Assembly (NCBI GenBank): GCA_004172935.1
Contig: SDZD01000025.1
Span: 1-64,000 of the forward strand
Source: a bacterium
Lineage (GTDB): Bacteria; Armatimonadota; Abditibacteriia; Abditibacteriales; Abditibacteriaceae
DNA: 64,000 bases
Reading direction: 5' to 3'
Shown: positions 1 to 6,024 of the stretch, in pieces
How positions within the stretch are numbered: position 1 is the stretch's first letter
How the letters are laid out: each line of letters opens with the position of its first letter
The notes under the pieces: generated by a model
The model's database searches: none
Told to the model about the DNA's origin: nothing
The model's input: only the letters and a program-made list of their open reading frames with translations
Position numbers and translations under genes: made by a program

Positions 1-439
1 ATACGAAGGCGGCGACGTTTTGATTGATGGAGTCGGGCGAAGCCGCGCCAGTGATGGGCGTCAGGGTGGGGGCGTTGTATTGGGTCTGCTCGTCGGGGGC
101 GTTCAAATCCCAAATCCAGCTGGCGATGGCGCGCGCTCTGGTGGCGGGGGTGTCGACGATGGTGGAGATAGTTTTGGAGGTCGGTTTGCCATCGGCGAAG
201 AGGATGCGGCGCCACTTGGCTTTATCGGTGAGAGCGGCGACGTAGCGCGCGTTCGATTCGATGGCGTACTGGTTGTATTCGGGGTTGGGACCACCAGAAA
301 CAATGAGCGCGCGGCTCCATTTGGAGGAAGGGAAGGGCACTGTTTGCGCGCGTGAGATGGTGCATGAAACCACTCCCATCGCGACTATGCCAAGCAATAT
401 CGAACCGGTGAATTTGACGGGAGCAAAAGGCGTTCTCAT
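1..439 (-). CDS. Exported protein, N-terminal part (cut by the window edge), possibly C13/caspase-like peptidase
   Basis: Reading the minus strand from the ATG at 437-439 gives an open frame of 146 codons that runs off the left edge. The N-terminus (MRTPFAPVKFTGSILLGIVA) is a typical export signal. It reaches VVSC near residue 25, which fits a loose lipobox, and a signal peptidase I site after SRA is also possible. The mature part begins with a strand followed by VSGGPNPEYNQY and a second strand, RRILFADG, a layout seen in C13/caspase-like clan CD peptidases. The catalytic His and Cys would lie outside the window, so the family call is tentative. The gene is separated from its upstream neighbour by a terminator at 468-507. 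Confidence 0.5.
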   Translation of the reverse strand, partial: MRTPFAPVKFTGSILLGIVAMGVVSCTISRAQTVPFPSSKWSRALIVSGGPNPEYNQYAIESNARYVAALTDKAKWRRILFADGKPTSKTISTIVDTPATRARAIASWIWDLNAPDEQTQYNAPTLTPITGAASPDSINQNVAAFV

Positions 440-2099: not shown

Positions 2100-3170
2100 T
2101 CAGGAAGACGAGTTGAGGTTCAGCCACTCATCTTGATCGGCATCGGGGAGTTTGGAGAGGAGCCAGTCGCGCAAAAACAGGCGCGCTTCCATTTGCTCGT
2201 GCTGCGAGGGCGGATAGGAAAATGGGAGTGGAACATCGAGTTCGAAAACGGGAGTTTCGCACCACCAGTTTTCACGGATTTCGGGGTCACCATTGCCGTT
2301 GTAATGCCAGGTTAAGCCGACAGCATAATTGTGCTGAATCATGAGTTCGGCCCAAGGACGTCCAATTTCAGACATGAGATCACAATGATGGGCCAAACCA
2401 GTACCTCTCCACAAAGTTGAGGGTAAGAAAGAGAAATCACTACTTGTGGCTGTGTTCCACGCCCATGCTCTAACACGCTTGTCGCCTGTTGCGCCGTATT
2501 CGTAATTCCATTGTTCGAGATGGTTATTGACTTTAAGAGCAGCTTCAGGGAAGGAACAAAAATAGGCGAGTATCAGGCAGCTGAGTTCTTCGCGAGAACC
2601 ACACACCCAATGGATCGGTATATTCTGGCGTTCAGCGTCGCTGAAAGGGCGACTCATAATAGCTGGCCAGATAACGTCATCCATAATATTTGATGGTATG
2701 TCTGGATTCCATCGGTCATGCCAAATTGAGTATTCGAATAATGCATGGGAAGGTGGCTCACTCTCCCAAGCAACCCAATCGCCGCCGCACCACTCACGCG
2801 CCCATCCTGTTTGCTTCGAACCATTTTCGTTCATGAGCCACAGTAGCGAGGTTTGGCCCTGGATTTTGTGCGTATATTCGCAGACCGCAAAGCGGGCGAT
2901 CTGCTTTTGGGCGATGGCGTCGTGGAAAAATTGCTCGGCGTGCCGAATGTTGCTCAGGAAGGGAATGGTAACAGCGAAGGTGGCTTCGCGGTGCCCCACA
3001 GGCCAATCAGTGAAGCGGAAGAAAAGCCGATTAGCCTTTGCCTTGAGCAGAACAGTTCGGTTCGAGCCAGCGAAGTGTAGATGAGTGATGGCATCGGGGC
3101 GAGGGTCGAAAGTGGCGCCCCGATGTTCCCACGGGAGGAGGATAAATTCAAAGTCGTCGCGCGAAGGCAT
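2100..3170 (-). CDS. Protein of unknown function, co-transcribed with an AAA+ ATPase; member of a local multicopy family
   Basis: A soluble protein of 356 residues with no recognised domain, rich in Trp, Phe and His (for example WAREWCGGDWVAWESEPPSH). It starts 2 nt after the stop of the AAA+ gene, so the two are almost certainly translated from one message. The N-terminus has a LLPWEHRG segment. The C-terminus has PPSQHEQMEARLFLRDWL. Similar segments (LLAPWEYEG and PPSYHEQLEARLELREW) occur in the plus-strand gene at 4448-5395, and the tail also occurs in the remnant at 4262-4426. I therefore infer a small paralogous family. No signal peptide or transmembrane segment is seen. Its role, perhaps as the substrate or partner of the ATPase, is inference from position only. 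Confidence 0.7.
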   Translation of the reverse strand: MPSRDDFEFILLPWEHRGATFDPRPDAITHLHFAGSNRTVLLKAKANRLFFRFTDWPVGHREATFAVTIPFLSNIRHAEQFFHDAIAQKQIARFAVCEYTHKIQGQTSLLWLMNENGSKQTGWAREWCGGDWVAWESEPPSHALFEYSIWHDRWNPDIPSNIMDDVIWPAIMSRPFSDAERQNIPIHWVCGSREELSCLILAYFCSFPEAALKVNNHLEQWNYEYGATGDKRVRAWAWNTATSSDFSFLPSTLWRGTGLAHHCDLMSEIGRPWAELMIQHNYAVGLTWHYNGNGDPEIRENWWCETPVFELDVPLPFSYPPSQHEQMEARLFLRDWLLSKLPDADQDEWLNLNSSS

Positions 3171-3172
3171 GA

Positions 3173-4246
3173 CTACAATTCGACGATTTCTTTGGCTTTT
3201 TTGCGATAGGCGCCGTATTCGGGTGTATCGCCGAGTTGGAAGAGAAGGCCGAGTTTTCCGGCTTTTTCGAGAAGGAGTTCCATCGCCAGAGCCTGAACTT
3301 CGGCGCGCGGGAGTTCATCATCGACGGTACTCATAGCTTCGAGAATGCGAATAGCTTTCTGGAAGTCACGCAATTCGGAGCAAAAGCCCGCCAACGAGTA
3401 GGTGAGGCCGTACAAGCCCGACAGGGTTTGCGGCAGCATCTTCGCCAGTTTCTTCTCGTCTTCGACGTTTTCGAAGAGTTGGTCCATTGGCGGTAGGTCT
3501 TTGAGTTCCTCGACGACGTGGAAGAACTCGGCGGCGGCGGCTTCACCAACGATCCCAGCAACGAGAAATTCGCGGGCATCGCGCGATTTCTCCTGGGTAA
3601 TGACGCGCGAAACACGCTCCCATGAGCGGGGAGTTGGGCCGATGAGTTGGCCCGCCGCCTGTTGCATCTGGTTCGATTCGAGGAAGTCGGGTTTGACCTG
3701 AATGAAGGTGAGAACTTCGGGCGCGATGCCGTTGTTTTGGCCCCAGCGAATCCATTCTTTGGGTTCGGGAACGACTTTGAAATGCACCAAACGGTCGGCC
3801 AGAGCGCTGCCCATGTCGTAGGCGACTGCGCCATCGTCGGGGGCGTTACCCGCGCCGACGACCCACCAACCATCGGGCAAACGGTATTCGCCGATGCGAC
3901 GGTCGAGAATGAGCTGATAGGCAGCAACCTGAAGGCGCGGTTCAGCGCCAGTCAGCTCGTCGAGGAAGAGGATGCCCTGCCCTTCGGTGGGCAGAAATTC
4001 GGGACGATACCAGACGGTGGTCTGGGTTTTATGGTCGAGCGCAGGTAGGCCGCGCAGGTCGGCGGCTTCGATTTGCGACAGCAAAACGATTTTGAGGTCA
4101 AGCCCTTTCGAATCGGCGAACTCGCGGATAAGGCTGGATTTGCCGATACCGGGGGCACCATGTAAGAAGGCGGGCAGACGTAATTTCCACAGGGGTTCAA
4201 GACAAGAGAGAACCCGGTTGGGGGTGACGGGGACTGTGTTAATCAT
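3173..4246 (-). CDS. MoxR-type AAA+ ATPase
   Basis: A protein of 357 residues. Walker A is GAPGIGKS at about 30-37, Walker B is ILFLDE at about 92-97, and a sensor-1 Asn lies in GAGNAP at about 131-136. The PxFLHG start and the RLPDGWWVVGAGN segment are typical of the MoxR/dynein-related AAA_5 group. Such ATPases usually remodel a partner carrying a VWA domain, but here the gene downstream is an unrelated 356-residue protein and no VWA gene is adjacent. The C-terminal 100 residues are helical. The gene faces away from the plus-strand remnant at 4262-4426, which sits in its 5' region. The ATPase call is firm; the biological role is unknown. Confidence 0.85.
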   Translation of the reverse strand: MINTVPVTPNRVLSCLEPLWKLRLPAFLHGAPGIGKSSLIREFADSKGLDLKIVLLSQIEAADLRGLPALDHKTQTTVWYRPEFLPTEGQGILFLDELTGAEPRLQVAAYQLILDRRIGEYRLPDGWWVVGAGNAPDDGAVAYDMGSALADRLVHFKVVPEPKEWIRWGQNNGIAPEVLTFIQVKPDFLESNQMQQAAGQLIGPTPRSWERVSRVITQEKSRDAREFLVAGIVGEAAAAEFFHVVEELKDLPPMDQLFENVEDEKKLAKMLPQTLSGLYGLTYSLAGFCSELRDFQKAIRILEAMSTVDDELPRAEVQALAMELLLEKAGKLGLLFQLGDTPEYGAYRKKAKEIVEL

Positions 4247-4261
4247 GAATTAAAAGCCGAT

Positions 4262-4426
4262 TTTGGACGATTAAAGAAAGCCTCAGGCACCGAAAAGTTT
4301 CTTTCGCAACAAAAGGCGGCTCCCAGTTATCACGAACAACTCGAAGCGCGTTTCACTTTGCATGAGTGGGCGCGCGAGCATTTGCCAGCGGATGTTTTGA
4401 CGGAGATCGAGCGCACCGAAGCGTAA
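4262..4426 (+). pseudogene. Truncated C-terminal remnant of the local paralogous family
   Basis: This plus-strand frame, without its own start codon, reads into the tail APSYHEQLEARFTLHEWARE, then HLPADVLTEIERTEA and a stop at 4424-4426. The tail closely matches the C-terminus of the gene ending at 5395 (PPSYHEQLEARLELREWAQA, HVPSEVFDEMERFGF) in both protein and DNA sequence, and more weakly the protein ending at 2100. Recognisable homology starts near 4319, and everything upstream is missing. It lies between the divergent AAA+ start (4246) and the next gene copy (4448), as expected for the stub of a deleted or replaced copy. Confidence 0.65.
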
Positions 4427-4447
4427 TGCCCAAAGGAAACGGGGGTT

Positions 4448-5395
4448 ATGCCCGATTCGCAGTTACTGGCGCCGTGGGAATATGAAGGAAAGATGCCCCA
4501 GGTGACTGTGGCGGGCGACGTTCTTTTTCAAGGCGAAGTGGTGCGGTTCGAGCTGTTGTGGGAAACAGAGCCGAATGAACATACCGAGCGCGAGGTGCGC
4601 AATGCCAACCGACTTGTGTTTCGGCGTGGAGACGATGATGGGAGTTGGACAATCCCACTGTACAAGGGGCGACTTCAGGCGAAGAACGTTATGGCGCGTT
4701 TGATATGGGGATTGGAACACGATGAAGGAGTGCGTGATTTTTGGTTCGGCGTCGAGAGGGCACGCATTTCTCCCAATGGGATTGGGCAGTGGGGGTACGA
4801 TATGATCTCATCTCACGGGGCGTACTTTTCGTTGGGACGGCGCATCTCGAAAATGACCTCTTCGCGAACCCATGCGTGGCTCGAAGAGTTGCTGTCCCGA
4901 TATTCCTCCGCCCTGTACTTTACGCGCGCCTTCTGGAAAGGCGACAGCGGCGAACAATGGAGGCAGGCGTACGGCTTTGACAGCTCGGAAGCAATCAATG
5001 CCGCCCATGATGAGATGCGAGGATTGTGTCGGTGCGTTCTGCATTCGGATAGGGACTTATAGGAAGGGGAGCAGAAAATCAACTGGAATTTCGCGTACCT
5101 ACCGAGGCAACACAGCCCTAATTTTCGCCTTATCAGCCCACTGAAAGGCCGCCGCGAAATCAGTGCCCGCATCGTGCTGTGGGCCAAGGTATTGGGCCAA
5201 TTTGGGCCATTGCAACCAAAGACCGAACGCCTGTGTTTGCGCGAGTGGTTCAAATCTTATCCGGTGTTGGGCATGGGAAAACTACATCCGCCCAGCTACC
5301 ACGAACAACTCGAAGCGAGACTCGAACTGCGCGAGTGGGCACAAGCCCACGTTCCCTCCGAGGTTTTCGATGAAATGGAGCGATTCGGGTTCTAA
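4448..5395 (+). pseudogene. Paralogous-family gene interrupted by one in-frame amber codon
   Basis: From ATG 4448 an open frame runs 204 codons to TAG at 5060-5062. It then continues in the same frame for another 110 sense codons to TAA at 5393-5395. The first half contains LLAPWEYEG and NANRLVFR, resembling LLPWEHRG and KANRLFFR near the N-terminus of the 356-residue protein at 2100-3170. The second half ends in the family tail PPSYHEQLEARLELREW. Start, end and length (316 codons) all fit a single gene with one nonsense codon and no frameshift. It may be a recent pseudogene, a sequencing error or a readthrough gene; the sequence cannot decide. The TA pair starts 9 nt downstream. No function is known. 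Confidence 0.7.
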
Positions 5396-5404
5396 ACTCT
5401 ATTC

Positions 5405-5689
5405 ATGAGCATTTTACAGGTAGAAATTTCCGAGGAGACGATGCGCCAAATAGAGTCCCGCGCGGCGGCCCGCAACCTCGATTTACAGTCGTGGCTACGC
5501 GAACAAATCGAGACAGCCCTGCTTCAAGAAAGCAATACAGAATGGGAAGAAAAAAAGCTTCTCGAAGCTCTTGATTCGCCAGTGGTTGAGGCAACACCAG
5601 AATGGTGGGAAAGCACTATCGCAGACCTTAACCGCGAAGCTAACTCGCGACGCGACAAACAAGATGGAGAATTGAAACACGCAGCATGA
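5405..5689 (+). CDS. Antitoxin of a ParD/ParE-like toxin-antitoxin pair
   Basis: A protein of 94 residues. The N-terminus MSILQVEISEETMRQIESRA and the following LDLQSWLREQIETAL have the strand-helix-helix pattern of ribbon-helix-helix (CopG/ParD-like) antitoxins. The charged C-terminal part would wrap the toxin. The stop overlaps the start of the ParE-like gene by 4 nt (ATGA), which is typical translational coupling of TA modules. Autoregulation of its own promoter is expected for the family, but no operator was identified with certainty in the 9-nt gap after the preceding gene. Confidence 0.75.
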   Translation: MSILQVEISEETMRQIESRAAARNLDLQSWLREQIETALLQESNTEWEEKKLLEALDSPVVEATPEWWESTIADLNREANSRRDKQDGELKHAA

Positions 5690-6024
5690 CACCTATCCCA
5701 GGTGTGCAATTGCATCGACAGGCAGTGGAGGATTTGCGCGAGATATTCTTATTTTTGGCACAAACAAATCAAGAACGCGCCAATCTTTTTGCTCGCAATG
5801 TGCAAAGCTCCATAGAGCTTTTGATTCATTCCCCTAAGCTCGGCTCTCCTCGTTCCTATGCAGACTCGCGCCTACATTCTTTGCGGCGCTGGCCTCTCAA
5901 GGATTTTAAGCAATACGGAATTTTTTATCGTCCCTTCGCTTCTGGTAATGGTATCGAGGTGTTTCGAGTTCTGCATTCGTCGCGGGAATCACAAACACAC
6001 TTGCAAGAATCGCTGAATTCGTGA
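5686..6024 (+). CDS. ParE/RelE-superfamily toxin
   Basis: A protein of 112 residues. The pattern LHRQAVEDLREIFLFLAQTN, then a helix, then PKLGSPRSY, RRWPLKDFKQYGIFY and IEVFRVLHSSRE, is that of the RelE/ParE fold: N-terminal helical hairpin, a central YADSRLHSLRRWPL-type strand and a final vLhssR strand. ParE members poison gyrase, whereas RelE members cut ribosome-bound mRNA. The residues here fit the ParE side better (no clear RelE Lys/Arg/Tyr triad). It overlaps its antitoxin by 4 nt. A hairpin terminator follows at 6038. Confidence 0.8.
   Translation: MTPIPGVQLHRQAVEDLREIFLFLAQTNQERANLFARNVQSSIELLIHSPKLGSPRSYADSRLHSLRRWPLKDFKQYGIFYRPFASGNGIEVFRVLHSSRESQTHLQESLNS

What the first reader, a model, noticed from the sequence alone, without database searches (positions are those of the whole stretch)
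2100..6024. AAA+ ATPase island with multicopy unknown proteins and a TA pair
A MoxR-type ATPase is coupled to a 356-residue protein of unknown function. Around it lie an interrupted paralogue and a truncated tail of the same family, next to a ParD/ParE-like pair. Repeated, decaying copies beside an ATPase and a TA module are typical of fast-evolving conflict or immunity loci. MoxR ATPases normally have a VWA partner, which is missing here, so the 356-residue protein may be a new partner type. Any defence role is inference.
Basis: partly seen in the sequence, partly recalled or inferred. Interest (0 to 1): 0.7.

Follow-up and report, generated by a model that had tools for sequence, protein, structure and literature searches.

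The report
Fast-evolving 33-copy protein family, one genome
The unknown protein beside the ATPase is not its new partner but one of about 33 very different copies of a family found almost only in this bacterium, scattered between ordinary genes and evolving fast, with a confidently predicted shape that matches no solved structure.

Summary
The genes are as described, but the pairing reading fails. The 357-aa ATPase is a MoxR/AAA_5 protein of the type that works with DUF2201 (metallopeptidase-like plus VWA) proteins. Its DUF2201 partner is not missing: an intact 424-aa one lies about 6.5 kb downstream on the same strand, across a contig break bridged by a split peptidase gene. The 356-aa protein belongs to a family (here FAM) with no Pfam, NCBIfam, PADLOC or PHROG match. 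The genome holds 33 full-length copies plus decayed ones, median identity 17%, Trp-rich (4.7% against 1.7%), lower in GC. FAM sits singly or in tandem among unrelated housekeeping genes. Only two FAM loci touch a MoxR gene, with different MoxR types and distant FAM branches. Syntenic sites in a same-genus genome are empty (gaps 67-122 bp). One outside relative (beside Hen1-Pnkp, 86-87% identical) is only 46% identical in FAM. Copies are constrained (dN/dS about 0.3, neighbours 0.07). A model (pLDDT 91.6) has no PDB or viral fold match. FAM is a new, fast-turning-over, lineage-specific family; a conflict or binding role is the best guess, unproven. The ParD/ParE pair is ordinary.

The parts
2100..3170 (-). 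FAM copy, 356 aa: N-terminal F-x-L-x-PWE motif and C-terminal PSQHEQMEARLFLRDWL motif
   Evidence: No Pfam match; profile member; Trp 5.9%, GC 52%
3173..4246 (-). MoxR-type AAA+ ATPase (AAA_5), 357 aa, of the kind paired with DUF2201
   Evidence: Pfam AAA_5 2.4e-6; relatives at 33-42% identity beside DUF2201 genes
4313..4426 (+). Truncated FAM tail (C-terminal motif only)
   Evidence: Profile match E 1.9e-4; 93% identical over 27 bp to the tail of the 4448-5395 copy
4448..5395 (+). FAM copy interrupted by one in-frame TAG (5060-5062)
   Evidence: Profile match 4766-5365, E 7.3e-15, one TAG inside; translation
5405..5689 (+). ParD-like antitoxin ORF, 94 aa, overlapping parE
   Evidence: Position and overlap; no significant Pfam match; named by context
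5686..6024 (+). ParE-family toxin of a type II TA pair, 112 aa
   Evidence: Pfam ParE_toxin 2.8e-13
2..439 (-). N-terminal part of a peptidase-like gene cut by the contig end; the rest starts contig C159, which carries the DUF2201 gene
   Evidence: Homologues in 6 relatives span both halves as one ORF; both reading frames shown

Best explanation
Two unrelated things lie side by side. (1) The ATPase is the AAA+ half of a MoxR-DUF2201 chaperone pair: the ATPase ring would remodel a client captured by the DUF2201 VWA/metallopeptidase-like protein, whose gene lies about 6.5 kb downstream on the same strand (pair inferred from homology; mechanism by analogy with NorQ-NorD and RavA-ViaA). (2) The 356-aa protein is one copy of FAM, a taxonomically restricted family with 33 full-length, very divergent paralogues in this genome. 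Shown: copies arise by local tandem duplication, lie in gaps between unrelated genes, are absent from the same sites in a same-genus genome, are constrained but evolve several-fold faster than neighbours, and some decay. One representative is confidently predicted as a single compact alpha/beta protein. Inferred: FAM are cytosolic, modestly expressed binding proteins kept for their diversity, most likely in conflict with mobile elements or rival bacteria (immunity- or sensor-like). Each copy would keep a common scaffold (Arg/Trp core plus the C-terminal PTxHExLEAxLxLRxWL helix) and vary elsewhere. That functional step is a minority-confidence guess of about 0.3; the anatomy is about 0.85.
For: 37 profile matches in the genome, 31 strong, plus two weaker full-length copies. 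No match at E<=0.01 in the same-genus, same-family, same-order or same-class relatives and one marginal partial match in 60 relatives; none in 290 other phylum genomes in a shallower scan. Median identity 17%; closest pairs are tandem neighbours, and most well-supported clades are tandem neighbours. Neighbours are ordinary: serS, infB, hisA, argD, carbonic anhydrase, transporters, ilvC, a tRNA cluster. Empty sites in the same-genus genome: gaps of 90, 118, 122 and 67 bp; argD-argF gap 15 bp in the same-family genome. L201: Hen1 87%, Pnkp 86%, FAM 46%. dN/dS 0.26-0.30 against 0.07. Trp 4.7% against 1.7%, GC 52% against 57%. Model pLDDT 91.6, pTM 0.85, no PDB or BFVD match below E 0.04. DUF2201 partner.
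Against: No toxin, phage or defence gene recurs beside FAM, and PADLOC gives no significant match, so a conflict role has no direct support. Conserved polar residues (R54, R100, H304, E305, E308 in C77-copy numbering) could equally be an active site. Absence in relatives could partly reflect loss, and L201 shows the family is older than this species. The contig join rests on a split gene, not on sequence across the gap. The genome is a 216-contig draft.
Confidence: 0.6

Rival explanations
1. The 356-aa protein is a true new partner (adaptor or client) of this MoxR ATPase, recruited from the FAM family.
For: 2-bp spacing and same strand; a second FAM pair lies 36 bp behind the MoxR gene of a MoxR-DUF58-TgpA operon on C189.
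Against: Most FAM copies have no AAA neighbour; the two MoxR-linked FAM loci are on distant FAM branches; the C189 site is empty in G001; the standard VWA partner is present nearby; tight spacing is common for FAM next to any gene.
Confidence: 0.1
2. FAM is a selfish mobile single gene whose product (for example a nuclease or recombinase) drives its own insertion between genes.
For: Scattered single copies in intergenic gaps with clean empty sites; decayed copies; lower GC and atypical codon use; conserved H/E/R residues.
Against: No near-identical dispersed copies: the closest pairs are tandem, 52% at most. No shared flanking motif, and at C202 there is no room for terminal repeats (15 bp upstream, overlap downstream). 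No nuclease or recombinase family match; fold unmatched.
Confidence: 0.15
3. FAM is a diverse gene pool acquired repeatedly by horizontal transfer (cassette-like), not expanded inside this genome.
For: Low identity between dispersed copies, low GC and codon adaptation; the star-like tree has long end branches.
Against: No donor seen in phages, plasmids, viral contigs or GTDB contigs at the sensitivity used; tandem clusters show in-genome duplication.
Confidence: 0.2
4. FAM has an unknown ordinary cellular function (regulation, metabolism, envelope) and expands by drift under weak constraint.
For: Purifying selection, heterogeneous neighbours, no defence-gene context.
Against: About 4-fold higher dN/dS than neighbours and 33 retained divergent copies are unusual for drift alone.
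Confidence: 0.25

Closest known systems
MoxR AAA_5 + DUF2201 (PF13203/PF09967) pairs
   Same: The window ATPase is 33-42% identical to ATPases directly beside DUF2201 genes in relatives; an intact DUF2201 protein with HEVLH and DTSGS motifs is on the adjoining contig
   Different: Here a FAM gene and several other genes lie between ATPase and DUF2201; normally the two genes touch or overlap
NorQ-NorD and RavA-ViaA MoxR/VWA chaperone pairs (PMC9976466, PMC10585395)
   Same: MoxR ATPase with a VWA-domain co-protein; mechanism assumed by analogy
   Different: DUF2201 carries an added metallopeptidase-like domain; client unknown
MoxR-vWA ternary conflict systems (VMAP, iSTAND, FtsH, beta-propeller; PMC7159879)
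   Same: MoxR plus VWA core
   Different: bpMoxR match far below cut-off; no third component found beside it; FAM is not one, as it does not co-occur with MoxR
Taxonomically restricted (ORFan) gene families
   Same: No match in family libraries, almost confined to one species-level lineage
   Different: 33 divergent paralogues dispersed through one genome, with purifying selection and a confident predicted fold

Membership tests
MoxR-type AAA+ ATPase (AAA_5) | AAA_5 domain over Pfam cut-off with Walker A and B | tested here: met
   28 bits against cut-off 22; GAPGIGKSS and ILFLDE present
MoxR-DUF2201 pair | A DUF2201 gene that pairs with the ATPase in the same gene neighbourhood | tested here: met
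   DUF2201 at C159:3295-4569, Pfam 1.5e-33 and 8.3e-23; contigs linked by a split gene; both proteins share G018:C4 as best match. Physical pairing not tested
MoxR-DUF2201 pair | ATPase and DUF2201 genes directly adjacent | tested here: not met
   About 6.5 kb plus an unknown gap, with several genes between
MoxR-vWA ternary conflict systems | A third component (VMAP, iSTAND, FtsH or beta-propeller) in the gene cluster | tested here: not met
   Pfam scan of the window cluster shows none; bpMoxR 12.1 bits against cut-off 27
Known defence family (for the 356-aa protein) | Match to a PADLOC model | tested here: not met
   Best of 30 copies: Csm3 at E 0.08, one copy only
Polymorphic-toxin immunity protein | Gene directly downstream of a toxin gene or in a polyimmunity array beside one | tested here: not met
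   Neighbours of the FAM loci are unrelated ordinary genes
Polymorphic-toxin immunity protein | Binds and neutralises a toxin | not testable with these tools
   Needs experiment
Type II TA (ParDE) | ParE toxin domain with an overlapping upstream antitoxin ORF | tested here: met
   ParE 2.8e-13; 4-bp overlap with the 94-aa ORF; the antitoxin itself gave no Pfam match

The most novel reading that the evidence does not exclude
FAM is a new protein fold and a new kind of lineage-private diversified system: some 33 constrained, very divergent variants of one scaffold, inserted as single genes or small tandem arrays between housekeeping genes, forming a genome-wide repertoire of recognition or immunity proteins in one bacterial lineage.
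Probability: 0.2. Interest if true: 0.85.

Novelty: new variant of a known kind. Interest (0 to 1): 0.52.

Why it matters
A family with a confident predicted structure, no solved relative, and 33 divergent but constrained copies in one genome and almost none elsewhere is a clean case for asking how bacterial genes arise, disperse and diversify. If the copies are a recognition repertoire it would be an undescribed one. The ATPase part corrects a plausible error: the VWA partner looked missing only because the contig ends.

Tried and rejected
Known family for FAM: Pfam, NCBIfam, PADLOC and PHROGs on 30 copies, and PDB by sequence, gave nothing significant. First model of the 356-aa copy was weak (pLDDT 63); the C77 copy gave pLDDT 91.6. 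Fold searches against PDB and viral models: nothing. FAM in viral contigs, phages, plasmids: nothing. Shared flanking motif or terminal repeat as a mobility mark: none above shuffles. tRNA association: only one cluster, plus a degraded tRNA-like piece between its two copies. Direct DNA overlap of contigs C131 and C159: none, so the link rests on the split gene. A search of genome contigs with the ATPase found nothing; alignments of all or eight FAM copies had no usable conserved stretch there. Papers: no description of this family found. Some script runs hung and were repeated.
Full report
OBSERVATION. The ATPase (3173-4246, minus strand, 357 aa) passes Pfam AAA_5. The 356-aa protein starts 2 bp after the ATPase stop and has no Pfam match even at E 1. 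On the plus strand lie a C-terminal tail of the same family (about 4313-4426), a nearly complete copy with one in-frame TAG (4448-5395), a 94-aa ParD-like ORF and a ParE toxin (Pfam 2.8e-13).

THE FAMILY IS GENOME-WIDE. A search with the single protein found distant copies elsewhere in the genome. A profile from 14 of them (A1) and then 30 (A2) gave 37 matches: 31 at E below 1e-29, weaker full-length ones on C180 and C156, and decayed pieces, including the two in the window. I call the family FAM. In 33 full-length copies the median pairwise identity is 17%; the closest pairs are tandem neighbours (52, 41, 37, 36%). In a maximum-likelihood tree, most of the well-supported forks group tandem neighbours; the rest is star-like with long branches. 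Copies share an N-terminal LxPWE-like motif, conserved R, W and F positions, and a C-terminal P-T-x-H-E-x-L-E-A-x-L-x-L-R-x-W-L helix (H 31/33, second E 30/33). FAM genes are Trp-rich (4.7% against 1.7%), lower in GC (52 against 57%) and in codon adaptation than 138 other genes of the same loci.

WHERE THE COPIES SIT. Neighbours are unrelated ordinary genes: seryl-tRNA synthetase, IF-2, HisA, arginine-pathway genes, HPP protein and carbonic anhydrase, ABC transporters, FGGY kinase, aminotransferases, a tRNA cluster, Hen1-Pnkp, and a MoxR-DUF58-TgpA operon. Taking orthologues of flanking genes in G001 (same genus, proteins typically 50-80% identical), the sites are empty: M15 peptidase-aminotransferase gap 90 bp (FAM at L022 in our genome), HisA-upstream gene gap 118 bp (L021), MoxR-amine oxidase 122 bp (L071), serS-upstream gene 67 bp (L018). 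In G002 (same family) argD and argF lie 15 bp apart where ours has FAM and a TnpB gene. No FAM match at E<=0.01 occurs in G001, G002 or the other same-order and same-class genomes with all candidates scored; of 60 relatives only one has a marginal partial match, E 0.004. A wider scan of 291 phylum genomes found only the own genome, but scored at most 8 candidates per genome. At C202 (L022) there is 15 bp before and an overlap after the gene, so no room for terminal repeats, and flanks share no motif beyond shuffles.

ONE OUTSIDE RELATIVE. The only confirmed hit in GTDB contigs is L201, a 3.8-kb contig filed under a Spirosoma MAG. It has the tail of one FAM gene, a second FAM gene with an in-frame TAA, then Hen1 and Pnkp, the order seen on our C77. 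Hen1 and Pnkp are 87 and 86% identical to ours; FAM is 46% (59% over the 44-residue tail). The contig is therefore probably a stray from a close relative of this organism (inference). FAM is older than this species but diverges far faster than its neighbours. dN/dS is 0.07-0.08 for Hen1 and Pnkp (dS about 1) and 0.26-0.30 for the youngest tandem FAM pair (dS about 1.2): constrained protein-coding genes, not junk, with about four times the relative rate. dS for other FAM pairs is saturated and not interpreted.

STRUCTURE. With 32 paralogues as alignment, the C77 copy gives mean pLDDT 91.6 and pTM 0.85: an N-terminal beta-meander, helix, more strands, a helical middle and a long C-terminal helix that carries the family motif. 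Foldseek finds no PDB match below E 0.13 and no viral match below 0.04, TM-scores normalised by query 0.16 or less. No library of cellular predicted structures was available, so 'new fold' is a lead, not a result.

THE ATPASE AND ITS PARTNER. Relatives of the ATPase in the own genome (C25) and in other genomes are followed by a 600-aa DUF2201 protein. The nearest relative, G018:C4 (39-42%), overlaps a DUF2201-like gene. The own genome has a second DUF2201 gene, C159:3295-4569, intact over both Pfam domains, with no ATPase gene found near it on C159. Contig C131 (the window) begins inside a peptidase-like gene and C159 begins inside the remainder: six relatives encode both halves as one protein. 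The two contigs are therefore very probably neighbours, and the DUF2201 gene lies about 3.2 + 3.3 kb (plus a small gap) downstream of the ATPase on the same strand. Its best match is again G018:C4. So the VWA partner is not missing; only the direct adjacency is lost, with FAM among the genes between.

WHY FAM IS NOT THE PARTNER. Only two FAM loci are beside MoxR genes; the two MoxR proteins belong to different types (AAA_5/DUF2201 type here; AAA_3 with AAA_lid_2 in a DUF58-TgpA operon at C189). Their FAM genes lie in distant parts of the tree, and G001 has the C189 operon without FAM. Tight spacing is common for FAM next to any gene.

FUNCTION. Not shown. Fast change on a kept scaffold, many retained variants, decay of some, lineage restriction and the absence of an enzyme-family match fit a diversified binding family in conflict; that is inference at about 0.3. 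Against it stand the absence of defence or toxin neighbours and the conserved polar residues, which could be catalytic. A selfish single gene, repeated acquisition from an unseen pool, or drift in an ordinary function remain open. The ParD/ParE pair is an ordinary type II module with no link to FAM beyond position.

Noticed in passing
window 2-439 (-) and L131 2-1072 (+): One peptidase-like gene is split over contigs C131 and C159; this joins two contigs of the draft assembly.
   Followed up: yes
L075 2992-9938 (G000:C77) and L201: FAM genes (three in tandem in our genome) lie just upstream of the Hen1-Pnkp RNA-repair genes in two organisms; in G022 (L087) a Hen1-like gene is next to a MoxR ATPase and a DUF2201-like gene instead.
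   Followed up: partly
L201 (JAQBNX010000772.1): Contig filed under a Spirosoma MAG whose genes are 86-87% identical to this genome: probably a mis-binned contig of a close relative.
   Followed up: partly
L079 6898-9643 (G000:C175): Two FAM genes sit inside a tRNA cluster (Ala, Glu, Trp, then Gly, Ser), with a degraded tRNA-like 3' end between them.
   Followed up: partly
L080 7210-9427 (G000:C66): An IS605-type TnpB gene and a FAM gene together separate argF and argD, which are adjacent in a same-family genome.
   Followed up: no
L017, L023, L072, L073, L075, L076, L077, L079: Many prepilin-type (FTLIELLVVIAI) proteins recur in the FAM loci; probably just abundant in this genome, but enrichment was not tested.
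   Followed up: no
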